The position numbers and the translations under genes are program-made. From the NCBI GenBank assembly GCA_021296345.1, contig JAGWAN010000008.1, positions 1-50,914 of the forward strand: DNA of 50,914 bases, in the 5' to 3' direction. Of the stretch, positions 25,781 through 45,937 are shown piece by piece (position 1 is the first letter of the stretch; each line of letters opens with the position of its first letter). The notes under the pieces were generated by a model. That model made no database searches. It was not told the DNA's origin and saw nothing but the letters and a program-made list of their open reading frames with translations. The stretch comes from Acidimicrobiia bacterium. Lineage in GTDB: Bacteria > Actinomycetota > Acidimicrobiia > Spongiisociales > Spongiisociaceae.

Positions 25781-25969
25781 TCAGCCACAGCAGGTATCCA
25801 TGGATGCCCCCGACCAGGGATGGTCCGACCCCGCCACCTCTTCGAGAACCTCCCCGTTCCGTGCCTTGCAGTCCGGGCACACCCACACCGCCGGCACCCT
25901 GGCGCCTTCCACCACCAGCGTTCTGTAGCGGTTGCCACAGTCAGGACAGGCGATTGCCAGGACAGGCAC
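25781..25969 (-). CDS. Small zinc-ribbon protein, 62 residues
   Basis: The product has two CxxC pairs (ACPDCGNRY and VCPDCKARNG) that would bind one zinc, and a C-terminal tail ending MDTCCG. I chose GTG at 25969 because GGGAG lies seven bases upstream. A longer frame start would overlap the preceding lyase. It follows the last gene of the putative CoM operon by 22 bp and precedes the LCP gene by 32 bp. It resembles FmdB-type small zinc ribbons of unknown role. The operon position hints at a link to CoM synthesis, but this is inference only. Confidence 0.75.
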   Translation of the reverse strand: MPVLAIACPDCGNRYRTLVVEGARVPAVWVCPDCKARNGEVLEEVAGSDHPWSGASMDTCCG

Positions 25970-25991
25970 GGCTTTCTCCCTGGTCGCTTGC

Positions 25992-27497
25992 TTAAACCTC
26001 CGCCAGGGCGGCGGCATCGGCGAGTAGGGCCTCCAGGGCCACATCCCGAGCGCTTCGCGAGGTTGAGGCCCATTCTAGGGATTCTCGTACCCGTAGCGAC
26101 ACCGAAGCACAGTGCTCCACCACCCGGTGGGGCGCCGATCCGCCGATCGAGTCTCGGGAGGCGACCATGGCCGCCACATCCTCCAGGTCTGGCCTCGACA
26201 CTTCCGGATCGGATCGGGCCGGTTCCATCCCCGCGGCTCGGGCCGCGTCGGCCAGGTGTCCGGCCGACACCTGCTCCTCCCCCGCCCTTGACGCTTCCGC
26301 CACCGCCCGGGCTACGACACGATAGGCGCTCCTGTAATCGAGACCCCCCTCCAGCACCAGACGGTCTGCCAGGTCCGTAGCGGTCGTGAAGTTCCTTCCC
26401 GCCTCAGCGGCCAGTCCGGCGACGTTCACCTTTAGCGAGCCGACCACCTCGGTCGCCAGCCGTACGAGCCGGGTTGCCATCTCCGTCGCTCCCACTACCT
26501 CCCCGTACAGGTAGAGCCAGTTGTCGGTCCGGGCGGACGGAGTCCGCTGCGTGACCATCATTCCGGTCGCCCGGCCGATGAGGGTTCCGCATCCGCCGCG
26601 GATCACCGCCAGAGCGTACGGATTGCGCTTCTGCGGGAGAAGCACGGAGGCCCGTGACGACGAGCCCCCCAAAATCACGTAGCCGAACTGAGGGCTGGCG
26701 AAGACCTCGAGGTCCTCGGCCAGGCGATCGACCGCCAGCGCGGCCTGCGCGGCCGCTACACCACAATCAATCATCGGATCGCCCGACCACATGCCGTCAC
26801 GGATATGGGCGGTGGGCTGCTCGAACCCCAGCCGGATGGCCATGCGGGAGCGGTCCACCGGGATCGGCGTTCCACCGACGCCGCCCGACCCGGCCGGTGA
26901 TTGGTTGACAAGTCGGTAGCAGCGGCGGATCCGGTCCAGATTCCGGGTCCCTTGCTCGGCGAAGCCGGCAAGGTAGTGGCCGAATGACGACGGTTGGGCA
27001 GGCTGCAGGTAGGTGGTGTCGTTCCACACCGCATCTGCCAACTCCTCGGACCGCTCGACCAGCACTTCGGTGCACCGGGCAACCGCGTCATGGAGGCCCA
27101 GAAGCCGGTCTCGGAGTACCAGGCGGATGGCGATGCGCCCAGCTTCCCGCCTCGTACGACCGGTCGGCAGCCACCCGGCCGCGGCGCCCAGACGGCGCTC
27201 GAGCTCCCGTTCCCGGCTGTTGTACGCGTCGCCGTAAATGGGGTCGTAGGGGAAGGAAGCGGGATCGGTGGCCAGGAAATCGAGCAACTCCCGGCAGAGT
27301 GCCGCCGCCGACGCCCGCGGCGCCACCCCCGCCGCGACCAGCTCGAGCACATGGCTGAGATCGGCCAGGCACAAGCCCTCGTGGAGGATGGTGGCGTCTG
27401 CCACCTCGAGGCGGTAACCGGCTGCCACCAGCTCCGGCGACGGACCCGATCCGAGCGGGCCATCCGCACCCAGATAGCCTTCGGGTGGCTGGATCAT
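25992..27497 (-). CDS. Argininosuccinate-lyase-like enzyme, candidate CoM biosynthesis lyase
   Basis: This 501-residue protein belongs to the aspartase/fumarase superfamily, closest in look to argininosuccinate lyase. QPAQPSSFGHYLAGFAEQ is at 165-182, and the catalytic loop GSSSRASVLLPQKRNP is at 278-293. The usual THLQ histidine is replaced by Tyr (TYLQ, 162-165), and the loop is longer than the standard GSSxMPxKxNP, so it is unlikely to be the arginine-pathway enzyme. The ATG at 27497 overlaps the PLP-enzyme stop by four bases. Bacterial CoM synthesis is known to use superfamily members (XcbC1 eliminates phosphate from phosphosulfolactate), and this is one of two candidates here. Confidence 0.75.
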   Translation of the reverse strand: MIQPPEGYLGADGPLGSGPSPELVAAGYRLEVADATILHEGLCLADLSHVLELVAAGVAPRASAAALCRELLDFLATDPASFPYDPIYGDAYNSRERELERRLGAAAGWLPTGRTRREAGRIAIRLVLRDRLLGLHDAVARCTEVLVERSEELADAVWNDTTYLQPAQPSSFGHYLAGFAEQGTRNLDRIRRCYRLVNQSPAGSGGVGGTPIPVDRSRMAIRLGFEQPTAHIRDGMWSGDPMIDCGVAAAQAALAVDRLAEDLEVFASPQFGYVILGGSSSRASVLLPQKRNPYALAVIRGGCGTLIGRATGMMVTQRTPSARTDNWLYLYGEVVGATEMATRLVRLATEVVGSLKVNVAGLAAEAGRNFTTATDLADRLVLEGGLDYRSAYRVVARAVAEASRAGEEQVSAGHLADAARAAGMEPARSDPEVSRPDLEDVAAMVASRDSIGGSAPHRVVEHCASVSLRVRESLEWASTSRSARDVALEALLADAAALAEV

Positions 27498-28441
27498 GCC
27501 GCCGAGCTCCCGCAGAAAAGGTTCAGGGTGCCACCGGTGACGAGAAACAGCACCGGCCCCCGCCCTTCGCCGGCCCGCCGGATCAGGTCGGCCAGAGCGC
27601 AGGACCCGTACTCGGGATCGAGGAAGACACCCTCCGTGCGGGCCATCAGCCTGGCGGCGGCGTCCACCTCCGAAGGGTCGGGATCCAGCTGGTCGGTGAC
27701 CTGCCACCGGACCGGGTACCGGCGGGTCACCTCCAGGAGATCGAGGGCTTCCTCGGATATGCCCTCGATGCGGCGCCGGCACTCCTCGATGGGCCGGTGC
27801 ACCGCCGTGCCAACCACCAGAGGGCCGCCGGACTGCCGCCGGTAGCCCGCCACCAAACCGGCCATCGTGCCGCACGATCCTGCCGCCAGCCAGACCGCAT
27901 CGAACCGGATTCCCGCCCTTCGCGCCTGGTCATCGATCTCATCGACCGCGGCCACGTACCCCAGTGCCCCGACCGGCCCGGCGCCGCCCCGGCCCACCAC
28001 GTAGGGACGGCGACCTTCATCCACCAAGCGCGCTTTCACCCGGTCTAGGAGCGGATCGACGGAGGCCCTGACCGGACTGCCGGTGAAGTGGATCCGTAGG
28101 TTGCCCAGCCGGTCGAGCAGATCGACTCCGCTCGTGCCGGCCGGCGGCCGGTCGCCGAACAACACCAACTCGCAGTCCAGTCCTCGGGCGGCCGCGGCGC
28201 TGGCCGCAGTCAGTACCCAGTTGGAACGGGGCCCTCCCCCGGTGACGAACACATCGGCGCCGGCCTCGTGGCAGGCGCCCATATGGAACTCGACCGCCCG
28301 GGCCTTGTTGCCGCCCAGGCCGATACCGGTCAAATCATCCCGCTTCAGCCAGATCGTCGTGCCGAGTTCCTCGGAGAGCCGGGGCGCGAAGGTCAGCGGT
28401 GTCGGCAGGTTGGCCAGGGCGATCCGAGCCGGGACCGTCAA
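27494..28441 (-). CDS. PLP-dependent D-cysteine desulfhydrase/ACC-deaminase-like enzyme
   Basis: The 315-residue fold-type II PLP enzyme has the Schiff-base lysine in KRDDLTGIGLGGNKARAVEF, a serine/asparagine loop (TGGGPRSNWVLTAASAAAAR) and a phosphate-binding LAAGSCGTMAGLVAGYR. It starts at TTG overlapping the preceding stop (TTGA). The family performs beta-eliminations at sulfur amino acids. Since bacterial CoM synthesis includes a PLP-dependent sulfur-transfer stage, and both neighbours are aspartase/fumarase enzymes, a role in thiolation leading to CoM is the likeliest reading. A free-standing D-cysteine desulfhydrase is the alternative. Confidence 0.8.
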   Translation of the reverse strand: MTVPARIALANLPTPLTFAPRLSEELGTTIWLKRDDLTGIGLGGNKARAVEFHMGACHEAGADVFVTGGGPRSNWVLTAASAAAARGLDCELVLFGDRPPAGTSGVDLLDRLGNLRIHFTGSPVRASVDPLLDRVKARLVDEGRRPYVVGRGGAGPVGALGYVAAVDEIDDQARRAGIRFDAVWLAAGSCGTMAGLVAGYRRQSGGPLVVGTAVHRPIEECRRRIEGISEEALDLLEVTRRYPVRWQVTDQLDPDPSEVDAAARLMARTEGVFLDPEYGSCALADLIRRAGEGRGPVLFLVTGGTLNLFCGSSAA

Positions 28442-29784
28442 CCGGCCGCTCTTATCACTCGATCCACGAACAGGGGGCCCGCGCCCATCACCCGGCCGAG
28501 ATCCGACTGCTCCTCGATGTCAGACCGGCTCAGGTGACTGGGCGCCCGGGGGTCGCTCATCAGCGCCTCGGCAAACGAGACCCCCTCCTCGACGCCGCGC
28601 ATGGCCGCCTCATACATGATGTCGTGGGCCGTATGCTTGCCGACCCGTTCGGCCAGCAACCGCATGACCGGCTCGGCGAACACGAATCCTCCCCGGGCGT
28701 CGATGTTGGCCCGCATCCGCTCCCCGTCAGCCTCGAGGCCCTCCACCAGTATCACCGCATAGCGGGTGGCCGAGAGGGTCAGGGCGGCGGCCTCGGGAAG
28801 TGCGATCCACTCGGCCTTCCAGGCCCGACCGTCCCGCTCATGGATCTGGACCATCGCCTCGGTCATCACCGATGCGTCGGCGCGCACCAGCCTGGCCAGC
28901 GTATCCAGGTGCTCCGACAGCTCCGGGTTGCGCTTCTGGGGCATGGTGATACTCCCCACGGTGCCCTCGATGAAGGGCTCGCGAACCTCGCCTATCTCCA
29001 ACCGCTGCAGCTCCATGATCTCGTTGCCGATCTTGGCGATCGTGGTGGCCACCATCGCCAGCAGGTGCACGAACTCGGCGGGCCCGTCCCGGCTGGTGAT
29101 CCAGGGGATCGTGGGAACGTCCAGACCCATCCGGTGGCCGAACGCATCCAGCAGATCGAGCGCCCGGTCGCCCCAGAACTCCAGGGTGCCGAGAGCACCG
29201 CCCAGCTGGACCACTTCCCATCGGCTCCGCCCGTCCGCGAGCCGCCGGCGGTGCCTGCCCAGTTCCGCCGCCCAGACCGCCGTCTTGAAGCCGAACGGGA
29301 TGGGCAGCCCCGGCTGGGCGTGGGTGCGACCCATCATCGGGGTGTTGCGATGATCGCGGGCCAGCGCCAGGGCAGCCGCCTCGAGCCGGTCCAGATCCCG
29401 TTCCAGCAGGTCGCCGACGGACCGCATCACCGTGACGGTCCAGGTGTCGGTGAGGTCCTGGACCGTTGCTCCGTAGTAGACCCATTCGCGGGCGGACTCC
29501 GGGAGGGTGGCTCGCAACACCCGGATCAGGCCCAGGGTGGAGTGGCCGGTGGCTCGGGTCTCGGCCGCGATCCGGTCCAGGTCGATCTCTGCTTCGGTTG
29601 CGTAGTCCCTGATGCACTCTGCGGCCCCTGCGGGTACCAGGCCCACCTCGGCCTGGGCCTCGGCGAGGGTGGCGAGAATGTCCAGCCAAGCACGGAAGCG
29701 GGCCTCCTCCCCCAGGATGGATCGGGCCTCCTCGGTACTCCACAGGTGCCCGTAGACGACGGAGTCGCCCAGGTGGATACTCAT
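28438..29784 (-). CDS. Adenylosuccinate-lyase-like enzyme, candidate CoM biosynthesis lyase
   Basis: The 448-residue aspartase/fumarase-superfamily protein has all three conserved regions: GHSTLGL (80-86), MGRTHAQPGLPIPFGFK (151-167) and the catalytic loop GSITMPQKRNP (277-287). Similar sequences are annotated as adenylosuccinate lyase or 3-carboxy-muconate cycloisomerase. Its place between an unknown gene (ATGA overlap) and the PLP gene (TTGA overlap) argues for a pathway-specific role. It is a strong candidate for the XcbC1-type phosphosulfolactate phospholyase or for the second superfamily step in CoM assembly. Which of the two lyases does which step cannot be decided here. Confidence 0.78.
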   Translation of the reverse strand: MSIHLGDSVVYGHLWSTEEARSILGEEARFRAWLDILATLAEAQAEVGLVPAGAAECIRDYATEAEIDLDRIAAETRATGHSTLGLIRVLRATLPESAREWVYYGATVQDLTDTWTVTVMRSVGDLLERDLDRLEAAALALARDHRNTPMMGRTHAQPGLPIPFGFKTAVWAAELGRHRRRLADGRSRWEVVQLGGALGTLEFWGDRALDLLDAFGHRMGLDVPTIPWITSRDGPAEFVHLLAMVATTIAKIGNEIMELQRLEIGEVREPFIEGTVGSITMPQKRNPELSEHLDTLARLVRADASVMTEAMVQIHERDGRAWKAEWIALPEAAALTLSATRYAVILVEGLEADGERMRANIDARGGFVFAEPVMRLLAERVGKHTAHDIMYEAAMRGVEEGVSFAEALMSDPRAPSHLSRSDIEEQSDLGRVMGAGPLFVDRVIRAAG

Positions 29785-30689
29785 CCGGCGGGGACCGGCG
29801 CCTCGAGGCCCACCAGCACCCGCAATGCCTGCCTCACCTCGTCGAGATTGGCGCCCCACGGCACCACCGCCCGGTTGCTCTCGACCTCCAAGCCCCGCTC
29901 CAGCATGCAACACTTGATGAGCCAGAGACCATCGGGGTCGGCGCTCTCCACCCGGCGCTTGGGGCAGATGTCGACCTGGGGCGGCTCGCTGCCGTAGAAG
30001 TGTCGGTGGAACTGCATCGAGCGCTCGCAACCGATCATCACCCACTCATCGGGCGCCGCGGGCCGGGTGTCGAGGTAGGACATCTTGGCAGACAACTCGG
30101 TGCCGGCCCCGCGGCACGGGAGAAGGTAGGAGTCCGAGGGGGCGGTGGCGGCCAGATCGTCGAAGGTGACCTCGTCCAGGACCAGATCCACCGGCGGCAT
30201 GTCCTCGTCGAATTCAACCACCTGCCGGGCTTGGTCCAGCAACTTGGGCGGCATGGGAGGGGTTACCTCGGTGACGAACACGCGCACCGGGTCAGGCTCC
30301 CAGATGAAGTTGATGTGCTCGAACCGGCCCTTCACCACGAAGGCGGAGACGCCGGGGCGTCCATGGCCGGCCGCTGCCGCGGCCAGCGCGGTGGCGTTCC
30401 CCACGTCAACGGTGGGATCCTCGATGAACTGCGTACGGTCGGGACCCGACCAGACCTCGACATCCACCACCGGCACGAACAGGTCGTCGGACTTCGCCCG
30501 CGCTACCGCCGCCAGGCCCACCGCTTCGCCGTGGATCAGGGCGATGTAGTCGGTGCGCCGGTAGACCTCCCGGCCCGTGAGATGTTCCCGCATGAAATCG
30601 GGGTGCGGTACCTCGTCGACATGCTGGACCGACAGCCCCCGGTAGGGGTGGGCACGAGCGTTGGGTGAGGGTTGGTCGGCTACCACCAT
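29781..30689 (-). CDS. Unknown conserved-looking protein, first gene of putative CoM operon
   Basis: I do not recognise this 302-residue soluble protein. I chose ATG 30689 (MVVADQPSPNARAHPYRGL); the 45 residues available upstream are low-complexity. The central region (VDVGNATALAAAAAGHGRPG, FVVKGRFEHINFIWEP) is mixed alpha/beta. The C-terminal third is rich in potential metal or catalytic residues: LPCRGAG, MIGCERSMQFHRHFYG, DICPKRR and IKCCMLERG. Its stop overlaps the lyase start (ATGA), so it is produced with two lyases and a PLP enzyme. CoM synthesis includes a decarboxylation and a reduction, and this protein may supply one. That is inference from context. Confidence 0.7.
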   Translation of the reverse strand: MVVADQPSPNARAHPYRGLSVQHVDEVPHPDFMREHLTGREVYRRTDYIALIHGEAVGLAAVARAKSDDLFVPVVDVEVWSGPDRTQFIEDPTVDVGNATALAAAAAGHGRPGVSAFVVKGRFEHINFIWEPDPVRVFVTEVTPPMPPKLLDQARQVVEFDEDMPPVDLVLDEVTFDDLAATAPSDSYLLPCRGAGTELSAKMSYLDTRPAAPDEWVMIGCERSMQFHRHFYGSEPPQVDICPKRRVESADPDGLWLIKCCMLERGLEVESNRAVVPWGANLDEVRQALRVLVGLEAPVPAG

Positions 30690-31215: not shown

Positions 31216-32322
31216 CTAGCCCAGTTCGCTGCGTACGATCTCCGCTCCCGAGACCATCGCGTGGAGCTTGTCCTGGGCGATGTAGCGCTGCAGGAGGATG
31301 AGCCCGCAGTCGGTGGTCACGCCCAACTGGTTGGCCGGTACGTGCTCGAGCAGCCGGCGGATCCGGCCCGCAACCTGCTCGGCCGTCTCGGTGATGGTCG
31401 ACTTCACGTCGATCACACCCGCCCAGAACTGGACGTGCTCGGGAACCGGATTGTCCCGGATCACGTCGAGGCCGGACAGGTCGTCCGAGCGCCGCCCGCA
31501 GTTCTCGAGGTTGAGAACATTGATGTTCGCCTCGTAGGACTTCGGGACCACCGAAGCGGTGGCAGACGGCTCGTCGCCCTCCCGGATGGTCAGATCGAAG
31601 ATCTCGCCGGCGCCGGCCGTATCGTCCGGGAAGTAGGCGGGAGTGCCGCCCCAGTTGCCCCAGCAGATGTGGACGATGATCTTGGCGTTCTGGACGCCTT
31701 CCACGGCCCGGTTGAAGGCATCGATCGCCCATGGCTCGTAGAAGTACGGCCAGGTGAACTCGTCCAACTGGATGAAGTCGATCCCCATGGCGTCCACCTC
31801 GAGGATGTCCTCGTTCACCGCCGCGGCGATAGCCATGGCCCGGTCCTCGGCGGCCTCGTAGTGGAGGTCGTTGGTGGCCTGGGCGAGGACCTGGATACCC
31901 GTGTACTGGACCTTGGTGGCCTTGTTGGTGGCCTGCTTCAGCGCCCTGGCCTGCTCGACCATGATGGCGCCGCGCCGCTTGACCTCCCCGGTGAGCGTGC
32001 CGGCATGGAGACGGCTGTATATCGGGAACCCGAGGAAGCCGCCCTTCAGGTCGTATCCGAGCCGCTTGTAGTAGTAGTAGAGGGCTTGGTCGGCATAGTT
32101 GTCGCCGTGGAGCCGCCCATCGGTGATGATGTCGAGGCCGGCGTTCTCCTGGTCCCTGGCGAGCGCGCCCACCGCGTCTTCCAGCGCCTCCCGGATGTAG
32201 GCATCCGGAGGCTCCTGATCCCCCGTCCAATCCCGTACGCAGTTGGCGTCCCACCACCTCGGATTGGGGTAGTTCCCGACCATCGAGGTCGGAATCAACA
32301 CCTCTTCGCCCTTGATCTGCAT
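31216..32322 (-). CDS. Epoxyalkane:coenzyme M transferase (MetE-family zinc enzyme)
   Basis: This enzyme opens aliphatic epoxides by attack of the CoM thiolate, giving 2-hydroxyalkyl-CoM. The 368-residue product is a single barrel of the cobalamin-independent methionine synthase C-terminal family. Zinc ligands are visible as H218 and C220 (IIVHICWGN) and C339 (GVTTDCG), which matches the His-X-Cys...Cys set of the Xanthobacter enzyme (H218, C220, C341) nearly residue for residue. The length also fits (about 377). GGAGG lies four bases before the ATG. With CoM synthesis, two kinds of SDR and 2-KPCC nearby, the assignment is firmer than a generic MetE-like label. Confidence 0.88.
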   Translation of the reverse strand: MQIKGEEVLIPTSMVGNYPNPRWWDANCVRDWTGDQEPPDAYIREALEDAVGALARDQENAGLDIITDGRLHGDNYADQALYYYYKRLGYDLKGGFLGFPIYSRLHAGTLTGEVKRRGAIMVEQARALKQATNKATKVQYTGIQVLAQATNDLHYEAAEDRAMAIAAAVNEDILEVDAMGIDFIQLDEFTWPYFYEPWAIDAFNRAVEGVQNAKIIVHICWGNWGGTPAYFPDDTAGAGEIFDLTIREGDEPSATASVVPKSYEANINVLNLENCGRRSDDLSGLDVIRDNPVPEHVQFWAGVIDVKSTITETAEQVAGRIRRLLEHVPANQLGVTTDCGLILLQRYIAQDKLHAMVSGAEIVRSELG

Positions 32323-33518: not shown

Positions 33519-35003
33519 ATGACCCCATATCGAGCCGCCGCTTCCCTGCGTGCCCGTTTTCTTCCCCACTTCGGCTGGATCGTGGCCTCGCTCATCGCCC
33601 TGGCGGTGTTGGTGGCCTGGCTGCCCGACCTGGACCTCCCACTCGGGGACAGTGATGACGGGCGGCTACTCGCCCGCTTCGGTCTGGCGGCCCGCAACTT
33701 CTGGGAACTCGGACCACTCGAGTCCGGTTTCGGCGCCCGCGTCGATCCGTACATCCGCGGCGAGTTCGGGATCGAACCGGGAGCGGTAGCGCCCGTGGAG
33801 GCTATGACCTACGCCCACCACCCGCCGCTCCAGGTATTCCTGGCCGTCCTCTCGGTCGGGATGCTGGGAGACAGCCCGGTCTCCCAGCGCATCGTGGGCT
33901 TCCTGATCGGCGCGGCGACGGTGCTGTTCATGGCCGGTGTCGGCCGGTCCGTCGGCATGAGGTGGGGTCCGATCCTCCTCGCCACCGGGGCCATGTCCGC
34001 CACCGGCTTCTTCTTCGTCTACGGGAGGATGGGCGGGGGCTTCTCCCTGATCGCGGCCTCCCTCGCCATGGTGGCCTACCTGCGGGAGGCGGACGATCCG
34101 CCCCGATGGGTCCTGTCGCTTGCCGCGGTCCTGTCCTTCGTCGCGGCCATGCAGTCCTGGATAGCCATCGCCGCGCTGGGTCTGGCGGTGATCTGGCTGT
34201 TCGGCGCCAAGCGCACCTCGGCGGTCACCTGGTGCGTAGCGTTGGGCGCCATCGCAGGCCTGGCTGTCACCGGACTATGGCTCCTGGCCAACACCCCCGC
34301 CGACGAGCTGACCCGCCAGGTGACCGCTCGGGTCGACACCGCCGACTTCACCATGGGAGAGTTCCTCGCCCGCCAGTGGCGCTTCGCCGGAGAGCTGACC
34401 CCCGTGTGGTTGCGTGCCCTGGCCCCCTTTGCCCTCGTGGCCGGCCTGGTGGATCGCCGCACCCGGGTACCGGTGGCCATCACGCTGGCAGTGGCGGCCG
34501 CCCTGACGTTCGGGACGAGCCAGGGCGCCTGGGTGCACCGCCTCTGGAACTTCCCCTGGCTGGCCCCGATCACCATCGGGACGATCGCCCTCGGGGACAT
34601 GGTGCGGCGGAGGATCGACCACCGTTGGGCCGCCTTGCTCGGAGCGATGGGAGCGATCGTGGTAGCCATCACGTTCTACGGTCTCTTCAACGGGCCGACC
34701 CGCGACACGTACCTGCTGGCGCCCGCCCACGCAGGCGCCATCGTCGAGCAGGCGCCGGCGCCGGAGGGCATCATGTGGGTGGCGCCCGGCATCCCCACGC
34801 CTCGCTGGGTGTCCTACTACCTCGACGTCCCGGTATGGAGGATCAATGAGCGTCACGCCGACCGGGTCAGTCCTGGCGATCTGGTGCTGGCACGCACCGA
34901 CCGGACGCAGGATTGGATCGAACTGCCGGAGGAATCCATCGTCGAAGCCGGGCGCTACCGGTTGCTGGACGGCGCCCTGATACAGGACCCCCACGAGCCC
35001 TGA
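33519..35003 (+). CDS. GT-C type membrane glycosyltransferase-like protein
   Basis: The 494-residue protein has about ten hydrophobic segments, from FGWIVASLIALAVLVAWLP to WAALLGAMGAIVVAITFYG, and a short soluble C-terminal domain. The acidic motif DSDDGRLLARF in the first external loop and the later HHPPLQVFL resemble the ArnT/PMT GT-C superfamily, which uses polyprenyl-phosphate sugars. Its role is probably envelope glycosylation, and its presence within the epoxide region may be incidental. A hairpin beginning 26 bp after the stop may terminate it. Confidence 0.62.
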   Translation: MTPYRAAASLRARFLPHFGWIVASLIALAVLVAWLPDLDLPLGDSDDGRLLARFGLAARNFWELGPLESGFGARVDPYIRGEFGIEPGAVAPVEAMTYAHHPPLQVFLAVLSVGMLGDSPVSQRIVGFLIGAATVLFMAGVGRSVGMRWGPILLATGAMSATGFFFVYGRMGGGFSLIAASLAMVAYLREADDPPRWVLSLAAVLSFVAAMQSWIAIAALGLAVIWLFGAKRTSAVTWCVALGAIAGLAVTGLWLLANTPADELTRQVTARVDTADFTMGEFLARQWRFAGELTPVWLRALAPFALVAGLVDRRTRVPVAITLAVAAALTFGTSQGAWVHRLWNFPWLAPITIGTIALGDMVRRRIDHRWAALLGAMGAIVVAITFYGLFNGPTRDTYLLAPAHAGAIVEQAPAPEGIMWVAPGIPTPRWVSYYLDVPVWRINERHADRVSPGDLVLARTDRTQDWIELPEESIVEAGRYRLLDGALIQDPHEP

Positions 35004-36970: not shown

Positions 36971-37776
36971 GTTCGCGATTCGGTCTTGACGAGCTGTTCG
37001 TGGTCGAACTCGCCCGGACCGTGCGAAATGCCGAAGTCATCTTCCATGGCTTCGGGAGCCCGTGCGCCACGGTTGCCATGCACCTCGCCAAGCGCACCCA
37101 TGCCCCCCACGCCTTGCTGATCGAAGGCGCCACCTATGCGGTCAACCCCTCCCCCGCGTTCATCCCTCCCTCCAGCAACGATCACTCCCTGAAGCGGGGG
37201 TCGGCCTATTCGATGCGCTTCGAGGAAGCGTTCGACATGTCGATCAGGGGCGACGTGGACCTCATGTTCCTGTCGGGTATCCAGATCGACCCCCACGGGA
37301 ACACCAACGTCACCGCGGTGGGCGGGATGCCCCAGCCGAAGGTAAAGCTGGGGGGCGGCGGCGGCGGGTGCAACATGTCGGCCACTATCGGTCGGCTCAC
37401 CCTGTGGACCACCAACCACCGGTCCGGGCGATGCCTGGTCGAGGAATGCGACTTCATCACCGACATCGGCCACCGGACCCCGGAGGGAACCCGGGCCGAG
37501 TTGGGCTATCCGGGGGGAGGCCCGGAGGTGCTGGTCACCGAATTGGGCGTGTTCGACTACCCCGAGGGTCGGGCCCGGCTGCGGAAGCTGTTCCCGGACG
37601 TGACCCTCGCCAATGTGACGGCCGCCACCGGCTTCGAGTTCGCCGTGGCGCCCGACCTGGCGCCGGTGGAGACACCTTCGCGAGACCAGATCGACCTGGT
37701 GCGGGCCATCGATCCGCTCAACGTCCGCCGGCGGGAGTTCCGCCCTGCCGAGCTCGAACGGACCTTCTCCCTGTGA
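36967..37776 (+). CDS. CoA-transferase subunit B (glutaconate/IpdB type)
   Basis: The 269-residue beta subunit starts at GTG overlapping the stop of subunit A. It shows FHGFGSPCATVAMHLAKRTH, DLMFLSGIQIDPHGNTNVTA and the glycine-rich LGGGGGGCNMSATIGR loop of the family. No classical SENG or EXGXG catalytic-Glu motif is evident, as in IpdB-like relatives, so its chemistry may differ from standard 3-oxoacid CoA-transferases. The stop overlaps the GTG start of the acyl-CoA synthetase, which completes a three-gene coupled operon. Confidence 0.82.
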   Translation: MSSRFGLDELFVVELARTVRNAEVIFHGFGSPCATVAMHLAKRTHAPHALLIEGATYAVNPSPAFIPPSSNDHSLKRGSAYSMRFEEAFDMSIRGDVDLMFLSGIQIDPHGNTNVTAVGGMPQPKVKLGGGGGGCNMSATIGRLTLWTTNHRSGRCLVEECDFITDIGHRTPEGTRAELGYPGGGPEVLVTELGVFDYPEGRARLRKLFPDVTLANVTAATGFEFAVAPDLAPVETPSRDQIDLVRAIDPLNVRRREFRPAELERTFSL

Positions 37777-39833
37777 GCCTCGACTCGGTATTCGAACCGG
37801 CGCGCGTTGCCGTGGTAGGCGCCTCCGACCGTCCCGGCAAGGTCGGTTCGGTCATCTGGAAGAACCTGGCGGCCTTCGACGGCGAGATCATCCCGGTGAC
37901 CACCTCGGCGGACCGTGTCGGAGGCGTGCCGGCGGTCCCGAGCCTGACGGAGATCGAGGGGACGGTCGATCTGGCGATCCTGGTCGTGCCTGCCCGTGCT
38001 GCACCCGTCATCGCCCGCCAGGCCGCTGCCAAGGGAGTGGGCGGGATCGTGGTGCTGGCGGGCGGGTTCGCCGAGACGGGACCGGCCGGGGCCGCCCTCC
38101 AGGCCGAGTTGGTCGAGGCGGCGGGGCCGGTCCGGATCGTCGGACCCAACTGCTTCGGTATCCAGAACATCGCACGAGGCCTCAACGCGTCGATCACTAT
38201 GGCTGGCGATATCGAGCCGGGAAAGGTGGCCCTGGTCACCCAGTCGGGCGCGTACGGGATGGCGATCCACTCGCTGGCGCTGGACGAGAACCTGCGCTTC
38301 GGCAAGGTGTACTCGTCCGGCAACAAGGCCGACATCGGCGACCACGAGGTGATCCGCTACTTCCATGAGGATCCCGGCACCGGCATCGTCTGCCTGCTGG
38401 CGGAGTCGGTAACCGACGGGGCCGAGTTGGCCGCGGCCATCCGAGCCGCCAGCCCGACCATGCCGGTGATCGTCACCAAGACCGGTCGCTCGGAGGCCGG
38501 GGCTCGAGCGGCACTGTCCCACACCGGGGCCCTGGGTACCGACGACGCCGTTTTCCGGGCCGCCATGCGCCAGGCCGGGGCCATTACCGTCCGATCCGGT
38601 CTGGAGATGCTCGACGTCGCGAGGGTGCTGGCCACCCAGCCCCTGCCGCAAGGTACTCGGGCGGCCATCATCACCAACTCGGGCGGGGTGGGTGTCGAGT
38701 TGGCCGACATGCTCGAGGACGAGGGGGTAGAGGTCCCCGAGTTGTCGCCCGCTCTCAGGGATCGCATCGCCGAAAGGCTGCCTCCGATCGGCAGCGCCCG
38801 CAACCCGGTGGACATGACCCCCATCTGGTCGCGGTTCGCGGAGCTCTACCCGGGGCTCACCGAAACGCTGGCCCGCTCCGGCGAGGTGGACCTGGTGATC
38901 CCCGTCCTGCTCCAGCGGGCAGCCATGGACGAGGCCACGCTGGTCGGACTGCGCGACACCGTGGCGGAGCTGAGGGCCGCCGGGAACCAGGTGCCCGTCT
39001 ACTGCTGCTGGGTGACCCCTAGAGACGGTCGGGCCATGGCCGGGATGCTCCAGTCTGTGGGGATTCCCTGCCTGGAGTGGCCCGAGCGCGTGGCGAGGGC
39101 GGTCGGGCACGCGGTGCGCTACGCCGCCAGCCGCTCGGGCATCAACCCGCCCGTTCGGGTCGACCCCTCCGCACCCTTCGGGCTGGCGGACGGACCGGTC
39201 CCTGCTACCGAAGCAGCCCGCATCCTGGCCCGCTACGGGATCGGCACCGTGGAGAGCACGCTGTGCGCGACAGCCGACGAGGCTCTAGCCGCGGCGGAAC
39301 GCCTGGCGGGGCCGGTGGTGATGAAGACCGCCGTCCCCTCCGTGGCCCACCGGGCCGAGGTCGACGGCGTACGGATGGACCTGTCCACCGGAGATGACGT
39401 CCGGGACGCCTACGGCGACCTGTCCACGCTGGGAGCGGAGGTCCTGGTCCAGCCCAGGCTGGAAGGCGTGGAGATGGCAGTGGGGGCCGTGCGGGATCCC
39501 GTGTTCGGGCCGCTGGTGATGGCCGGTATGGGCGGGACCATGGTGGAATTGCTGGAGGATGTGGCCTTCGCGCTGGCGCCGGTCAGTAAGGAAGAAGCGA
39601 TCGGGATGCTGGAGAGCCTGAAGGGCTTCCCTCTACTCGCCGGTTACCGGGGCAGGCCGGCGGTTGACCTCGACACGCTCGGGGAAGCGATAGCCGGCGC
39701 CTCCCGCCTGGCCGCTGAGCACCCCGAACTGAGCGAGGTCGACCTCAACCCGGTAATCGCAACCGGATCCGGCGCGGTCGCGGTGGACTGGAAACTCTAC
39801 GTGAGCCACCCGCCCGAGAGCGGCCGGGCGTGA
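37773..39833 (+). CDS. Acyl-CoA synthetase (ADP-forming), fused alpha-beta
   Basis: The enzyme makes acyl-CoA from a carboxylic acid, CoA and ATP through a phosphohistidine. The 686-residue product has an N-terminal CoA-binding Rossmann domain (RVAVVGASDRPGKVGSVIWK), two succinyl-CoA-synthetase-like domains (GPNCFGIQNIARGLNASIT, and the active-site region ALSHTGALGTDDAVF with its His), and a C-terminal ATP-grasp domain (PVVMKTAVPSVAHRAEVDGV, EVDLNPVIA). GTG 37773 is the start; longer in-frame sequence upstream only overlaps the CoA-transferase. Activation of acetoacetate or another epoxide-derived acid is inferred from the operon. Confidence 0.85.
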   Translation: MSLDSVFEPARVAVVGASDRPGKVGSVIWKNLAAFDGEIIPVTTSADRVGGVPAVPSLTEIEGTVDLAILVVPARAAPVIARQAAAKGVGGIVVLAGGFAETGPAGAALQAELVEAAGPVRIVGPNCFGIQNIARGLNASITMAGDIEPGKVALVTQSGAYGMAIHSLALDENLRFGKVYSSGNKADIGDHEVIRYFHEDPGTGIVCLLAESVTDGAELAAAIRAASPTMPVIVTKTGRSEAGARAALSHTGALGTDDAVFRAAMRQAGAITVRSGLEMLDVARVLATQPLPQGTRAAIITNSGGVGVELADMLEDEGVEVPELSPALRDRIAERLPPIGSARNPVDMTPIWSRFAELYPGLTETLARSGEVDLVIPVLLQRAAMDEATLVGLRDTVAELRAAGNQVPVYCCWVTPRDGRAMAGMLQSVGIPCLEWPERVARAVGHAVRYAASRSGINPPVRVDPSAPFGLADGPVPATEAARILARYGIGTVESTLCATADEALAAAERLAGPVVMKTAVPSVAHRAEVDGVRMDLSTGDDVRDAYGDLSTLGAEVLVQPRLEGVEMAVGAVRDPVFGPLVMAGMGGTMVELLEDVAFALAPVSKEEAIGMLESLKGFPLLAGYRGRPAVDLDTLGEAIAGASRLAAEHPELSEVDLNPVIATGSGAVAVDWKLYVSHPPESGRA

Positions 39834-40596: not shown

Positions 40597-43199
<2,603 letters not shown>

Positions 43200-43360
43200 C
43201 CGGTCGGTATGTAGTTGATAGTTGATAGCTAAATCTATATTCCTATTGTTTAGGAGTAACGAGCGCCAGTATCTATCACCTGGCCACTGCTGGACGATCT
43301 GTTCCAAGGGATCCGCCAGCACCAACTACCGACTAGGAACTACCAACTACCAACTAGGGA
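43200..43360. repeat. Convergent spacer with composite repeat copy B
   Basis: The spacer between comA and the LLM oxidoreductase contains GTTGATAGTTGATAG, CCTGGCCACTGCTGG, the block GATCTGTTCCAAGGGATCCG (43296-43315) also seen at 33378, and three AACTACC/AACTAGG units from 43321 that extend to about 43369. AT-rich tracts around 43225-43250 stand out. No gene is present. Confidence 0.6.
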
Positions 43361-44278
43361 CTAATCAGCGAGATCGGCCAGGAGGTCCCGAGTGGCGCCG
43401 GTTCCGATCCCGGTGTCGAACGGGACCGCCCAGACATCGGTGGCGCCCGCATCGAACAGGGCCTGGATACGTGACCGGACCGTCTCCTCGTCGCCGGCGA
43501 TGACCGAGTCCGCCGGTCCGTCCACCCCTTCGCGGGCGAACAGTCGCTGGTAGTTGACGAGGTTGCCGTACATGCCGAAGGTCCGGTTGGCCGCGGCCCC
43601 GGCCCGGTCCCGGTCCGCGTCCACGGCCACCGGAATCCCCGCCAACACCCGGGGCGAGGGCTTCCCCGCCGCTTCCGCACCCTCGGAGGCGGCGGGCAGT
43701 ACCACTTCCTCCAGGGACTTCGGTCCGGCCAGCCACGTGGTAACTCCGTCGGCCAGCTCCCCGCCCAGCCGGCACATCCCGGGCGCCAGAGCGCCGACGA
43801 TGACCGACACCCGTGATGTCCCGGGTACGTTTATGGCCGCCTCGACCCGGTAATGATCCCCGGCGAAGCTCGCCTCGCCTTCCCCCAGCAACCCGTCCAG
43901 GACGGTCAGGTACTCCCGCAGGTGCCCTATCTGGCTCGAATAGTCGAGGCCGTGCATCCCCTCGATGACCGGACGATGGGAGACGCCCACGCCGAGCACG
44001 AAGCGTCCGCCCGACAGGGACTGGACGGTGGCCGCGGACTGGGCCAGCGCCACCGGATGGCGGGGGTAGGTGGGAACCACCCCCACCCCGAGCTCGATAC
44101 GCGAAGTCTGCTGCGCCGCCGCGGCCAGCATGGTCATCGAGTCGATGCCCCGGCTGAAGTGGATGCACCACGCCGAGCTGAACCCATCCTCCTCGGCGGC
44201 GACCGCATCACCGACCACGTCCTCCGGGGCCTTGAACATGCCTACCGGCTCGCCGCCGATAAGAATCGTGATCCGCAT
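43361..44278 (-). CDS. LLM-class F420-dependent oxidoreductase
   Basis: The 305-residue luciferase-like barrel begins MRITILIGGEPVGMFKAPED and has the family segments GFSSAWCIHFSRGIDSM, RIELGVGVVPTYPRHPVALA and SGGRFVLGVGVSHRPVIEGMHG. These are typical of actinobacterial F420-dependent hydride-transfer enzymes. F420 can be made here, since cofD and cofE are in the window. The substrate is unknown. It lies 22 bp downstream of the hydrolase gene on the same strand, and a role around epoxide or alkene metabolism is only suggested by position. Confidence 0.85.
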   Translation of the reverse strand: MRITILIGGEPVGMFKAPEDVVGDAVAAEEDGFSSAWCIHFSRGIDSMTMLAAAAQQTSRIELGVGVVPTYPRHPVALAQSAATVQSLSGGRFVLGVGVSHRPVIEGMHGLDYSSQIGHLREYLTVLDGLLGEGEASFAGDHYRVEAAINVPGTSRVSVIVGALAPGMCRLGGELADGVTTWLAGPKSLEEVVLPAASEGAEAAGKPSPRVLAGIPVAVDADRDRAGAAANRTFGMYGNLVNYQRLFAREGVDGPADSVIAGDEETVRSRIQALFDAGATDVWAVPFDTGIGTGATRDLLADLAD

Positions 44279-44300: not shown

Positions 44301-45041
44301 CTATCCGAGTGTGGCGGCCAGCAAGCGAAGCAGGCGGGCCAGGGTGTCGCTGGTAGCGGCGTGATGATAGGAATCGGCGTCGTCATCCAGGTAGTCGTGG
44401 CCCACACCGTCATACAGGATCCATCTGCCGTGGGGGTTGAGCCGCTGGGCCTCGTCGACCCCGGCGGCGGGTACCAGCTCGTCGTCCGCCCCGTAGAGGC
44501 CCAGGACCGGCATCGGAAGCATCTCCAGGGCATCGACCACCGGCAGGCGCCTAGCCTCATCGCCGGCCAGCGGAGCGTACGCCACGCAGAGCGCCCCCAC
44601 CGCCCGCTGGCGGTGCGCCGCATAGATGATGGCGAACCGGCCCCCCATGTCGATCCCCACCATGCCGATCTTGCCGGGACGGACCCAGCCGGCCGGATCG
44701 GCGAACGCAAAGGCCACCGCATCGTCGATGTCCGCCAGGGCGCGGCTGTCCCGGATCCCCTGGTAGGTGGCCACCAGATCCTCGAACGGCGCCTTGGCAC
44801 CGGGATGGGCGCCCCTGGTCAGGTCGGGCACGAGCACGGCGTATCCGTTACGCGCCAACCGGCGGGCAAGATCCCTTACGTACGCCGTGATCCCCTGGAG
44901 TGGGGGCAGCAGCATCACCAGCGGGTAATCACCGATCCGGTCCGGGCGGGAGAGGTAGCCGGTAGTGAACCCGGCCCCGGACGGCATCGCGAAGTCACGA
45001 TAGAGAATCTCTATCGTTCCCTCATGCTGGAGAATCGCCAT
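44301..45041 (-). CDS. Dienelactone-hydrolase-like alpha/beta hydrolase with Asp nucleophile
   Basis: The 246-residue alpha/beta-hydrolase has the dienelactone hydrolase layout, but its nucleophile elbow reads GIDMGG, giving Asp131 instead of Cys. The acid D186 or D187 (GLYGADDELVP) and H215 (GVGHDYLDDD) complete a triad. An Asp nucleophile is used by haloalkane dehalogenases and epoxide hydrolases, so an ester-intermediate chemistry on an epoxide or halide is possible, though a non-hydrolase role cannot be ruled out. ATG 45041 has AGGAGG four bases upstream. Confidence 0.78.
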   Translation of the reverse strand: MAILQHEGTIEILYRDFAMPSGAGFTTGYLSRPDRIGDYPLVMLLPPLQGITAYVRDLARRLARNGYAVLVPDLTRGAHPGAKAPFEDLVATYQGIRDSRALADIDDAVAFAFADPAGWVRPGKIGMVGIDMGGRFAIIYAAHRQRAVGALCVAYAPLAGDEARRLPVVDALEMLPMPVLGLYGADDELVPAAGVDEAQRLNPHGRWILYDGVGHDYLDDDADSYHHAATSDTLARLLRLLAATLG

Positions 45042-45169
45042 GCCACCTCCTGTACGGGGCCCGGGCAGGCACCCCGAACGGCTCTCAATCGTAGCGAGTG
45101 GAGGGGTCACAGCTGAACCCGCGGTCTCGCAGCGCCGTAACCGCCGGGGAGGAACCTAGGATCACCGTC

Positions 45170-45937
45170 ATGAGACTCCAAGGACGCACCGCTCTCATAA
45201 CCGGCGCCGGGTCGGGCATCGGCCGGGCCACCGCCGAACTCTTCGCGAGCGAGGGAGCCGGGGTTGCGATACTCGATCGCGACGCGCCGGCCGCCGAGGC
45301 GGCCGCATCCGCCATCTCGGCCACGGGCGCGGAGGCCCATCCGGTGGTCGCTGATGTGTCTTCTCCGGACGAGATGTTCCGAGCCGTGGCCCGCTCCGCC
45401 CGGCTCCTCGGCCGCCTCGACATCGTCTTCAACAACGCCGGCGTAGCACCGTCCGGGTCGGTTCTTGATGCGGACGAGGATGAGTGGGACCGGTGCTTCG
45501 CCGTCAACGTCAAGGGCACCTACCTCACCTCTCGGGCCGCCATCCCCCACCTGCAGGCCGCAGGCGGCGGATCGATCATCAACCAGGCATCCGTAGCCGC
45601 CCTGGTCGGGATGGCGAACTTCTCCGCCTACAGCGCCGCCAAGGGTGCGGTGGTCTCGCTGACCCGCGCCATGGCGATCGACCTCGCTCCGATGGGGATC
45701 AGGGTGAACGCCCTCTGCCCTGGCGCCGTCCACACACCGATCATGGAGCCGCTCATGCGCAATCAAGGGGGTGGCAGCGTCGAGCGGGGACTGGAGCTCA
45801 CGGCCGCCAAGCACCCGATCGGGCGCCTCGGAACCCCGATGGAGATCGCCGCCACCGCGCTGTTCCTGGCATCGGACGACGCTGCCTTCGTCACCGGCGC
45901 CATCCTCCCGGTGGACGGCGGCAGAACCGCCCAGTAG
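45170..45937 (+). CDS. SDR dehydrogenase, candidate 2-(S)-hydroxyalkyl-CoM dehydrogenase, paralog 2
   Basis: This 255-residue SDR is the same length as the enzyme at 35171 and very similar across its whole length, with S141, Y154, K158 and K214 (TAAKHPIGR) retained. The main differences cluster in the variable substrate regions (for example FNNAGVAPSGSVLDADEDEW and GAVHTPIMEPLMRNQ), which could mean a different chain length or enantiomer preference. CCTAGGATC before the start and CAGTAGCCGG at the end are shared with paralog 1, but MITEs are absent here. The start at 45170 is taken by homology; a longer frame from 45098 is unlikely. Confidence 0.78.
   Translation: MRLQGRTALITGAGSGIGRATAELFASEGAGVAILDRDAPAAEAAASAISATGAEAHPVVADVSSPDEMFRAVARSARLLGRLDIVFNNAGVAPSGSVLDADEDEWDRCFAVNVKGTYLTSRAAIPHLQAAGGGSIINQASVAALVGMANFSAYSAAKGAVVSLTRAMAIDLAPMGIRVNALCPGAVHTPIMEPLMRNQGGGSVERGLELTAAKHPIGRLGTPMEIAATALFLASDDAAFVTGAILPVDGGRTAQ

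What the first reader, a model, noticed from the sequence alone, without database searches (positions are those of the whole stretch)
25781..45937. Epoxide carboxylation pathway and its coenzyme M supply in one ~20-kb chromosomal region
The region encodes an epoxyalkane:CoM transferase, an R-type hydroxyalkyl-CoM dehydrogenase, two candidate S-type SDRs, 2-KPCC, phosphosulfolactate synthase, two aspartase/fumarase lyases and a PLP enzyme. Active-site residues of the transferase, R-type SDR and 2-KPCC are visible. The established examples (Xanthobacter, Rhodococcus, Mycobacterium) often carry these genes on megaplasmids; here they sit between envelope and carboxylase housekeeping genes. The occurrence in this lineage and the gene arrangement may be undescribed.
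Basis: partly seen in the sequence, partly recalled or inferred. Interest (0 to 1): 0.93.

Follow-up and report, generated by a model that had tools for sequence, protein, structure and literature searches.

The report
Chromosomal coenzyme-M epoxide carboxylation gene block
An actinobacterium of the class Acidimicrobiia (likely an uncultured marine sponge associate) and ten of the 14 family relatives searched carry, at one chromosomal place, a mosaic set of genes predicted to make coenzyme M and use it to turn small epoxides plus CO2 into acetoacetate, although searches of these draft genomes found a monooxygenase family that could make such epoxides in only two of the eleven.

Summary
Only one of the two "S-type" SDRs is conserved, and it lacks one of three S-type site residues. 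The block sits at one chromosomal site, empty in two relatives, with dN/dS 0.05-0.22 and dS overlapping the flanks. It is a mosaic: XecA, 2-KPCC and XcbB are nearer Xanthobacter; XcbC/E/D/A, SDR1, CoA-transferase and synthetase nearer actinobacterial ethene clusters, but the ethene-type aldehyde dehydrogenase and flavin reductase are not in the block. pMMO/AMO matched 0 of 12 and diiron monooxygenase 2 of 11 pathway genomes. Verdict: a new variant of a known pathway in a new lineage, with an open epoxide source. All functions are predictions.

The parts
25992..27497 (-). XcbC-like lyase (argininosuccinate-lyase type), CoM synthesis (predicted)
   Evidence: NF052535 392.6 bits, its best family but below cut-off 575; 40% to Xanthobacter XcbC1, 57/53% to JS614/NBB4; PQKRNP motif kept
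27494..28441 (-). XcbE-like PLP enzyme, last step of CoM synthesis (predicted)
   Evidence: NF052537 230.0 bits, its best family but below cut-off 450; 41% to XcbE1; PLP Lys46 in GGNK; SNW motif shared with JS614/NBB4, SNH in Xanthobacter and three methanotrophs
28438..29784 (-). XcbD (3-sulfopropionylcysteine synthase family)
   Evidence: NF052536 664.1 bits, cut-off 600; 46% to XcbD1
29781..30689 (-). XcbA family protein (DUF7714)
   Evidence: NF052538 372.8 bits, cut-off 150; PF24830; 42% to XcbA1
31216..32322 (-). Epoxyalkane:coenzyme M transferase (XecA type)
   Evidence: 77% to Py2 XecA over 370 columns; H218, C220, C339 align with XecA H218, C220, C341
32511..33251 (-). R-2-hydroxypropyl-CoM dehydrogenase type SDR (XecD-like)
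   Evidence: 48% to XecD; S142 R152 Y155 K159 W195 R196 all kept
33519..35003 (+). Membrane protein by eye, not part of the conserved block
   Evidence: no Pfam/NCBIfam hit; near full length only in G000, G004 and G005 of the loci read
35171..35938 (+). SDR1, S-like/etn-type hydroxyalkyl-CoM dehydrogenase candidate
   Evidence: 50% to XecE over 224 aa; PDB 4gh5/4itu (S-HPCDH; that identity is recalled) second best at 197.7 bits, against 155.8 for R-HPCDH 2cfc; K214 and Y215 kept, R211 is Thr; on the JS614/NBB4 side of a split with UFBoot 100
36056..36970 (+). CoA-transferase subunit A (glutaconate/IpdA type)
   Evidence: PF01144 90.3 bits; PDB 6con 114.8 and 5mzw 108.3 bits; 65/63% to JS614/NBB4
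36967..37776 (+). CoA-transferase subunit B
   Evidence: PF01144 26.2 bits; PDB 5n00 91.4 bits; 66/62% to JS614/NBB4
37773..39833 (+). ADP-forming acyl-CoA synthetase (fused, with ATP-grasp domain)
   Evidence: PF13549, PF13607, PF13380; TIGR02717 377.6 bits, below its cut-off of 567.15; 50/41% to JS614/NBB4
40756..42339 (+). 2-ketopropyl-CoM oxidoreductase/carboxylase (XecC)
   Evidence: 67% to XecC; 793.2 bits to PDB 1mo9; C82 H84 C87 H137 M140 R56 R365 M361 F501 H506 kept
42336..43199 (+). Phosphosulfolactate synthase XcbB/ComA
   Evidence: TIGR03849 300.3 bits, cut-off 280; PF02679; 56% to XcbB1
43361..44278 (-). F420-dependent LLM-class oxidoreductase of the block
   Evidence: TIGR03564 280.8 bits, cut-off 234.25; matches at E<=1e-30 in the 11 pathway genomes and in none of the 4 others of the family; beside XcbB in OM1 bin76 too
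44301..45041 (-). Hydrolase-like gene, right flank
   Evidence: retained at the empty sites of G005 and G011; the label dienelactone-hydrolase-like (DLH) is my reading of the sequence, no family call
45170..45937 (+). SDR2, variable paralogue of SDR1
   Evidence: 82% to SDR1; S-type site T-K-H; not at the locus in G002, G007, G009, G010, G013; kept in G005, which lacks the pathway

Best explanation
The block 25992-44278 is a gene cluster kept at one chromosomal site and predicted to make its own coenzyme M, to add it to short-chain epoxides and to end in a reductive carboxylation to acetoacetate, which the adjoining CoA-transferase and synthetase would likely activate to acetoacetyl-CoA. Predicted steps (chemistry recalled from the known pathways): (1) XcbB, XcbC, XcbD and XcbE, with XcbA, make CoM from phosphoenolpyruvate, sulfite and cysteine. 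(2) XecA opens the epoxide with CoM. (3) The R-type SDR and SDR1 oxidise the hydroxyalkyl-CoM to 2-ketopropyl-CoM. (4) 2-KPCC cleaves the C-S bond with NADPH and fixes CO2, giving acetoacetate and CoM. (5) CoA-transferase A/B and the ADP-forming synthetase pass acetoacetyl-CoA to central metabolism. (6) The F420-dependent LLM enzyme has an unassigned redox role in the same pathway. Because 9 of 11 family carriers show neither monooxygenase family searched, the epoxide probably comes from outside the cell or from a general oxygenase, so the pathway is probably used for scavenging or detoxification. Shown here: sequence similarity, residues, gene order, selection and distribution. Inferred: every reaction, the substrate, and the roles of the CoA module and the LLM enzyme.
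For: Identity and residues. Same order in genera g1 and g2 and in OM1 bin76 of another family of the order. Pathway in 11 of 15 family genomes: XecA, 2-KPCC. Empty sites in G005 and G011. For the 13 block genes against three relatives, dN/dS 0.05-0.22 and dS 0.24-0.63, flank dS 0.23-0.41. 2-KPCC keeps H506, while six of six methanotroph homologues have Tyr there. Ethene-type aldehyde dehydrogenase and flavin reductase not found in the window or in the stretches of G004, G008, G010 and OM1 searched, flavin reductase in 0 of 10 genus genomes at E<=1e-30, which makes acetoacetate the likelier substrate of the CoA module. LLM co-occurrence 11 of 11 and 0 of 4. Precedent for a CoM-epoxide cluster without alkene monooxygenase, proposed to work in detoxification: PMC11507031 (abstract, sections 13, 16 and 17, and passages read).
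Against: XcbC and XcbE score below their NCBIfam cut-offs. SDR1 lacks R211 of the S-type site, as do the ethene oxidisers. 2-KPCC has Ala for Tyr472 and Gln for Glu493 of XecC. [quoted passage not shown] Names given by sources to the close XecA relatives are mixed, many reading methionine synthase (best 120 of 1152 listed). Nothing ties the block to a substrate. G013 lacks XcbC and XcbB at the locus. The LLM co-occurrence rests on related genomes and may reflect one or two events.
Confidence: 0.74

Rival explanations
1. A dual ethene/propene system: SDR1, the CoA-transferase pair and the synthetase process epoxyethane through CoM-acetate to acetyl-CoA, while the R-type SDR and 2-KPCC process epoxypropane.
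For: SDR1 and the CoA module are closest to the ethene clusters of JS614/NBB4 by identity; the NBB4 plasmid holds both sets, including a 2-KPCC with F501/H506 and an R-type SDR.
Against: No JS614-type aldehyde dehydrogenase in the window or in the G004, G008, G010 and OM1 stretches, whereas five of six methanotroph stretches have it at 68-70%; no JS614-type flavin reductase in 10 of 10 genus genomes at E<=1e-30, though G010, G011 and G013 have a 40-41% relative elsewhere and G012 and G014 weaker ones. The aldehyde dehydrogenase was not searched for genome-wide.
Confidence: 0.3
2. Growth on alkenes: the organism has its own alkene monooxygenase that the draft assembly or the profiles miss.
For: G001 and G013 have a soluble diiron monooxygenase, alpha subunit 47% to the Py2 plasmid's alpha subunit (its name XamoA is recalled); the window's genome is 95%, not 100%, complete; P450s occur in 15 of 15 family genomes.
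Against: PF02332 matches in 2 of 15 family genomes (2 of 11 with the pathway) while the Py2 plasmid control rings; PF02461 in 0 of 12 pathway genomes while both methanotroph controls ring. The two diiron enzymes lie on other contigs than the block and match toluene/o-xylene monooxygenase best in the PDB. P450s occur also in genomes without the pathway. Other oxygenase families were not searched.
Confidence: 0.2
3. Coenzyme M is the main product, used as a general thiol or released, and epoxide turnover is secondary.
For: XcbC/E/D/A in one run plus XcbB beside 2-KPCC.
Against: XecA and 2-KPCC are the most conserved genes of the block between genera (93-94% and 91-92% in genus g2, against 47-73% for CofE to LCP on the left flank and 85-87% for the carboxyltransferase on the right) and keep their catalytic residues; they persist in G013 although XcbC and XcbB are missing from the locus there.
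Confidence: 0.06
4. The block is a recent horizontal acquisition carried by chance, without fixed function in the lineage.
For: Mosaic affinities; 12 of 395 sampled Acidimicrobiia genomes have XecA; empty sites in G005 and G011. dS of LLM, XcbC and the R-type SDR (0.35-0.63) reaches above the flanks.
Against: Same site in both genera; dS otherwise overlaps the flanks and dN/dS is well below 1.
Confidence: 0.03

Closest known systems
Xanthobacter autotrophicus Py2 epoxide carboxylation cluster (pXAUT01, Xaut_5047-5055)
   Same: XecA 77%, XecC 67%, XecD 48%, XecE 50% (224 aa), XcbA 42%, XcbB 56%, XcbC 40%, XcbD 46%, XcbE 41%
   Different: Py2 genes run on one strand, Xcb order A-B-C-D-E, on a plasmid; no match to the CoA-transferase pair, synthetase or LLM in the 41-kb stretch at E<=1e-12, though PMC11507031 reports Py2 homologues of the CoA genes in its several clusters; the Py2 plasmid has diiron monooxygenase genes and a flavin reductase at the end of the stretch
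Actinobacterial ethene (etn) clusters: Nocardioides JS614 pNOCA01, Mycolicibacterium chubuense NBB4 pMYCCH.02
   Same: Order XcbC-E-D-A; CoA-transferase A/B plus synthetase; SDR with the same T-K-Y site
   Different: EtnE only 49/46% to window XecA, XcbB 38/35%; etnE beside diiron monooxygenase genes, on plasmids; in the JS614 stretch the only 2-KPCC match is a 26% flavoprotein. NBB4 has a 2-KPCC and an R-type SDR about 12-14 kb from etnE, so it is the nearest actinobacterial precedent for the mixture
Methanotroph CoM-epoxide clusters (Methylohalobius crimeensis, PMC11507031; loci L032, L034-L037, L040)
   Same: XecA 72-74%, CoA-transferase pair, Xcb genes; no dedicated alkene monooxygenase reported for M. 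crimeensis
   Different: Order XcbA-B-C-D-E where the stretch is long enough (L032, L034, L040); aldehyde dehydrogenase in five of six and flavin reductase in two of six stretches; Tyr at 506 of the 2-KPCC homologue in six of six; no LLM or synthetase match in the stretches at E<=1e-12; pMMO in both genomes checked
Marine propylene-assimilating Halieaceae PE-TB08W (PMC6440738, passages read)
   Same: Py2-type epoxide carboxylase and CoM genes in a marine bacterium
   Different: Gammaproteobacterium (recalled; family name in the title) with a putative alkene monooxygenase cluster near them

Membership tests
Epoxyalkane:CoM transferase (XecA) | Full-length similarity far above methionine synthases | tested here: met
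   77% to XecA; nearest solved MetE-like chain 125.3 bits
Epoxyalkane:CoM transferase (XecA) | His-X-Cys...Cys zinc ligands (recalled) | tested here: met
   H218, C220, C339 align with XecA H218, C220, C341
2-KPCC (XecC) | Redox cysteines C82/C87 with H84 and H137 (roles recalled) | tested here: met
2-KPCC (XecC) | F501 and H506 in place of the His-Glu dyad of other disulfide oxidoreductases (recalled) | tested here: met
   F501/H506 in the window, L025, L028, L030, L038, Py2 and NBB4; Tyr506 in six of six methanotrophs
2-KPCC (XecC) | Tyr472 and Glu493 of XecC (role uncertain, recalled) | tested here: not met
   Ala472 and Gln493 in the window, L025, L028 and L030; Ala and Asp in OM1 bin76; NBB4 has Phe and Glu, methanotrophs Tyr and Asp. 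I do not treat these as defining
2-KPCC (XecC) | CO2 fixation on 2-ketopropyl-CoM | not testable with these tools
   needs an enzyme assay
R-2-hydroxypropyl-CoM dehydrogenase (XecD) | S142, Y155, K159 and sulfonate-site R152, W195, R196 (roles recalled) | tested here: met
   kept in 6 of 6 acidimicrobial sequences aligned and in NBB4
S-2-hydroxypropyl-CoM dehydrogenase (XecE) | R211, K214, Y215 sulfonate site (numbers and roles recalled) | tested here: not met
   SDR1 T-K-Y in 6 of 6 acidimicrobial sequences, SDR2 T-K-H; T-K-Y also in JS614 and NBB4; R-K-Y in four of four methanotrophs. SDR1 is filed as S-like, not as XecE
Bacterial CoM biosynthesis (XcbA-E) | All five genes present and linked | tested here: met
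   XcbB lies apart, after 2-KPCC
Bacterial CoM biosynthesis (XcbA-E) | NCBIfam curated cut-offs | tested here: inconclusive
   XcbA and XcbD over theirs, XcbB over TIGR03849; XcbC 392.6 of 575 and XcbE 230.0 of 450 below
Alkene-growth pathway (Py2, etn) | Alkene monooxygenase in the genome | tested here: not met
   PF02332 no match in own genome, matches in 2 of 11 carriers; PF02461 0 of 12; controls ring. Two families only, draft genomes
Ethene (etn) pathway | JS614-type aldehyde dehydrogenase and flavin reductase in the cluster | tested here: not met
   neither in the window nor in the G004, G008, G010 and OM1 stretches; flavin reductase 0 of 10 genus genomes at E<=1e-30

The most novel reading that the evidence does not exclude
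A host-associated actinobacterial lineage has built an F420-coupled, monooxygenase-free epoxide-carboxylation pathway from Xanthobacter-type and ethene-type parts, and uses it to scavenge epoxides leaked by ammonia- or methane-oxidising neighbours in the same holobiont, fixing CO2 onto them; the block's LLM enzyme is an F420-dependent hydroxyalkyl-CoM dehydrogenase that replaces or supplements the missing S-type enzyme.
Probability: 0.15. Interest if true: 0.8.

Novelty: new variant of a known kind. Interest (0 to 1): 0.57.

Why it matters
CoM-dependent epoxide carboxylation is known from a few alkene degraders, often on plasmids (recalled; PMC11507031 passage), and as a proposed detoxification system in some methanotrophs. 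Finding it at one chromosomal site across two genera of Acidimicrobiia, under purifying selection and mostly without a matching monooxygenase, suggests a standing epoxide supply in their habitat and possible cross-feeding. It adds three testable parts (CoA-transferase pair, synthetase, F420-LLM enzyme) and shows that genes of the C2 and C3 pathways have been recombined. The methanotroph 2-KPCC homologues with Tyr506 offer a natural contrast for testing what makes this enzyme a carboxylase.

Tried and rejected
Two S-type SDRs as a pathway feature: rejected for SDR2, which is missing from the locus in five carriers and kept in G005, which has no pathway. The membrane gene 33519-35003 and the PIN gene 39938-40351 as parts: rejected, scattered. 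The LLM enzyme as the missing epoxide-forming oxygenase: disfavoured, since it scores over the F420 family cut-off and its nearest solved chains are F420-dependent methylenetetrahydromethanopterin reductases. The diiron monooxygenase of G001/G013 as the general epoxide source: rejected as general, 2 of 11 carriers. P450 presence: uninformative.

Errors, limits and dropped rows. In one search the Xanthobacter row of the SDR1 tree was the R-type paralogue XecD, and the methanotroph and JS614 rows of the SDR_R tree were S-type; neither tree is used, and my note still quotes the faulty SDR1 value; SDR1 was redone with XecE. In one search rows with under 60% query coverage or no hit were dropped: JS614 in KPCC; OM1 in XcbC; M. 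oryzae in XcbE; Xanthobacter in both CoA-transferase trees and the synthetase tree; methanotrophs in the synthetase tree. Trees are unrooted. For XecA and XcbB the actinobacterial branch is so long (1.19 and 1.84) that affinity is read from identity, not topology; formally the trees join Xanthobacter with the actinobacteria (79 and 46), and the KPCC tree joins NBB4 with the methanotrophs (79). The CoA-transferase A tree joins JS614 with the methanotrophs (92) and the B tree joins OM1 with them (69), so the actinobacterial affinity of that pair also rests on identity. One search dropped tblastn hits under 45% identity (35% for OM1) or covering under a quarter of the query; one search kept the best of overlapping hits. 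dN/dS is a pairwise count. One search scored only three candidates per genome, so 1 of 396 is a lower bound; searches are samples of larger groups. One search found no paper. Bin names and accession stems were searched to confirm a sponge origin, without success. Term searches for epoxide and coenzyme M gave 0 and 0 in PMC12263773, PMC12008989 and PMC8941161, and in PMC9999580 0 and 2, both methyl-coenzyme M reductase. Nguyen et al. 2023 on sponge Acidimicrobiia is cited in PMC12263773; I did not look for its text.

Full report
What was checked. Identities to Py2 are XecA 77%, 2-KPCC 67%, R-type SDR to XecD 48%, SDR1 to XecE 50% over 224 residues, SDR2 to XecE 47%, XcbA 42%, XcbB 56%, XcbC 40%, XcbD 46%, XcbE 41%. 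The 2-KPCC keeps C82, H84, C87, H137, M140, R56, R365, M361, F501 and H506 in XecC numbering. The R-type SDR keeps S142, R152, Y155, K159, W195 and R196. XecA keeps H218, C220 and C339 at the positions of XecA H218, C220 and C341. The roles of these residues are recalled, not from a call.

Against a perfect fit: XcbC and XcbE fall below their NCBIfam cut-offs, SDR1 has Thr where XecE has the Arg that I recall as R211, and 2-KPCC has Ala472 and Gln493 where XecC has Tyr and Glu. XcbE lacks part of a C-terminal stretch of XcbE1 but keeps the PLP lysine and shares an SNW motif with the actinobacterial homologues. Of 1152 XecA relatives at E<=1e-20 the best 120 were listed; source names among them are mixed, many reading methionine synthase, and the Xanthobacter versatilis plasmid protein, named 2-hydroxypropyl-CoM lyase, is among them at 77%.

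Lineage. The window is contig 43 of a 2,826,246-base draft genome, 94.95% complete. Of the ten named records holding a 2-KPCC at 85% or more, six are titled 'Acidimicrobiia bacterium' and four just 'bacterium'. Bin names such as RHO1 and APA suggest sponge metagenomes; that is recalled convention, and no call confirmed it.

Distribution. XecA is in 9 of 10 genus genomes and in 12 of 395 sampled Acidimicrobiia genomes at E<=1e-80: nine of genus g1, two of g2, and G258, which is OM1 bin76 by contig position. A 2-KPCC at 88% or more is in the same 11 of 15 family genomes (in G002 it is split over two contigs). In a 396-genome sample of the phylum only the window's own genome had 2-KPCC at E<=1e-120, with three candidates scored per genome.

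Anatomy. From right to left the minus strand carries R-type SDR, XecA, XcbA, XcbD, XcbE, XcbC; the plus strand carries SDR1, CoA-transferase A, CoA-transferase B, ADP-forming synthetase, 2-KPCC, XcbB; the F420-LLM gene is convergent to XcbB. Of the 11 family carriers, eight show all 13 genes on the stretches read (G000, G001, G002 over two contigs, G004, G007, G008, G009, G010); G003 and G006 are cut by contig ends before the Xcb operon, and G013 lacks XcbC and XcbB at the locus, where the stretch holds no N. OM1 bin76 shows 12 of 13; the fetched stretch ends where XcbC would lie.

Site. The block lies between an LCP-family gene and a hydrolase-BirA-carboxyltransferase run in both genera, where the contigs reach. 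G005, of the same genus and 97% complete, has LCP, membrane gene, an SDR, hydrolase, SDR2 and BirA there; G011, of another genus, has LCP followed by hydrolase and BirA, on a 3.0-Mb contig. So this is one site with filled and empty states. Whether G005 lost the block or never had it is not settled; the membrane gene, which lies inside the block in G000 and G004, leans towards loss.

Selection. Against G004, G008 and G001, the 13 block genes have dN/dS of 0.05-0.22 and dS of 0.24-0.63; the flank genes (epimerase, UDP-glucose dehydrogenase, LCP, hydrolase, BirA, carboxyltransferase, biotin carboxylase) have dS of 0.23-0.41. The highest block values belong to LLM, XcbC and the R-type SDR. This mostly fits vertical inheritance within the genus. 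XecA and 2-KPCC are strongly conserved: 93-94% and 91-92% in genus g2, where XcbE is 63-64% and the synthetase 69-70%.

Mosaic. By identity, XecA (77 against 50/46%), 2-KPCC (67 against 55%, NBB4 only) and XcbB (55 against 39/36%) are nearer Py2 than the ethene clusters of JS614/NBB4, while XcbA (42 against 55/54), XcbC (40 against 57/53), XcbD (46 against 56/60), XcbE (43 against 47/47) and SDR1 (50 against 58/61) are nearer JS614/NBB4. Unrooted ML trees separate Xanthobacter plus methanotrophs from Acidimicrobiia plus JS614/NBB4 with ultrafast bootstrap 100 for XcbA, XcbC, XcbD and XcbE (for XcbD JS614 and NBB4 are not a clade), and 100 for SDR1 redone with XecE (that side also holds the R-type sequences). 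Trees that do not speak clearly are told under Tried and rejected. The order C-E-D-A also matches JS614/NBB4. In NBB4 a 2-KPCC with F501/H506 and an R-type SDR lie on the same plasmid as the ethene genes, so mixing of the two pathways has an actinobacterial precedent.

The CoA module. PMC6440738 states that a CoA-transferase/synthetase is used in ethylene but not in propylene metabolism (passages read). In PMC11507031 the same kinds of genes are assigned to the epoxyethane branch (section 13). In the Acidimicrobiia the partners of that branch were not found in the block: the JS614 aldehyde dehydrogenase, present at 68-70% in five of six methanotroph stretches, and the flavin reductase, present in two of six (stretches differ in length); the latter also has no match in 10 of 10 genus genomes at E<=1e-30. 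I therefore infer that the module activates acetoacetate, the 2-KPCC product. The dual C2/C3 reading remains the main rival.

The LLM enzyme. It scores over the TIGR03564 cut-off. Its nearest solved chains are F420-dependent methylenetetrahydromethanopterin reductases; F420-dependent alcohol dehydrogenase 1rhc matches at 44.6 bits. At E<=1e-30 it matches in the block of all 11 family carriers and nowhere in the four family genomes without the pathway; four carriers also have a 40-43% paralogue elsewhere. It is beside XcbB in OM1 bin76 and had no match in the Py2, methanotroph or JS614/NBB4 stretches at the cut-offs used (E<=1e-12, E<=1e-8). The carriers are related, so these are not 15 independent observations. 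F420 synthesis genes CofD and CofE lie at 20179-21884.

Epoxide source. The soluble diiron monooxygenase family PF02332 has no match in the window's genome and matches in 2 of 15 family genomes, both carriers; the Py2 plasmid rings as control, while both methanotroph genomes given with it do not match. PF02461 matches 0 of 12 carriers, with both methanotroph genomes ringing. P450s occur in 15 of 15 family genomes. The drafts are incomplete, so absence is provisional, and other oxygenase families were not searched; OM1 bin76 was not searched for PF02332.

What is known. M. [quoted passage not shown] No held paper found by the searches was seen to describe this pathway in Acidimicrobiia (listings read; papers opened are named with their calls); the library lacks most subscription papers, so this is not proof that it is undescribed.

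Verdict. Membership of XecA, 2-KPCC and the R-type dehydrogenase in their families is well supported by sequence; XcbC, XcbE and SDR1 are weaker. The system is a new variant of a known pathway: new lineage, one conserved chromosomal site, mosaic make-up, an added F420 enzyme, and no consistent monooxygenase. All activities remain to be shown.

Noticed in passing
L032, L034-L037, L040 (2-KPCC homologues): Six of six methanotroph 2-KPCC homologues have Tyr in place of His506 but keep C82, C87, H137 and F501, so they may cleave without carboxylating. The M. [quoted passage not shown] not checked.
   Followed up: partly
L059 (G013:C120) 4139-4497 and 16475-17718: G013 lacks XcbC and XcbB at the locus; a 350-aa gene on the minus strand (nucleotidyltransferase-like by eye) fills the XcbB place, and the other block genes are kept. 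Whether XcbB and XcbC lie elsewhere was not searched.
   Followed up: partly
L067 (G001:C146) 2392-5871 and L068 (G013:C161) 3834-7289: Two carriers of different genera share a diiron monooxygenase cluster, alpha subunit 47% to the Py2 alpha subunit and, in G001, best PDB match toluene/o-xylene monooxygenase, on other contigs than the block.
   Followed up: partly
window 33519-35003; L070 8496-9950; L053/L054: A membrane-like gene lies inside the block in G000 and G004, beside LCP in G005 without the block, and leaves a 72-residue match in G008: a possible trace of rearrangement at the site.
   Followed up: partly
window 39938-40351: A PIN-domain (VapC-like) gene lies upstream of 2-KPCC in G000 and G007 only.
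   Followed up: no
window 20179-21884: CofD and CofE of F420 synthesis lie beyond the envelope genes left of the block. CofE keeps that place in G001, G002, G004, G008, G010, G005 and G011; it is not listed in the G009 stretch. CofD was not compared.
   Followed up: no
L080 30653-33657: The NBB4 plasmid holds a 2-KPCC with F501/H506 and an R-type SDR about 12-14 kb from its ethene genes.
   Followed up: partly
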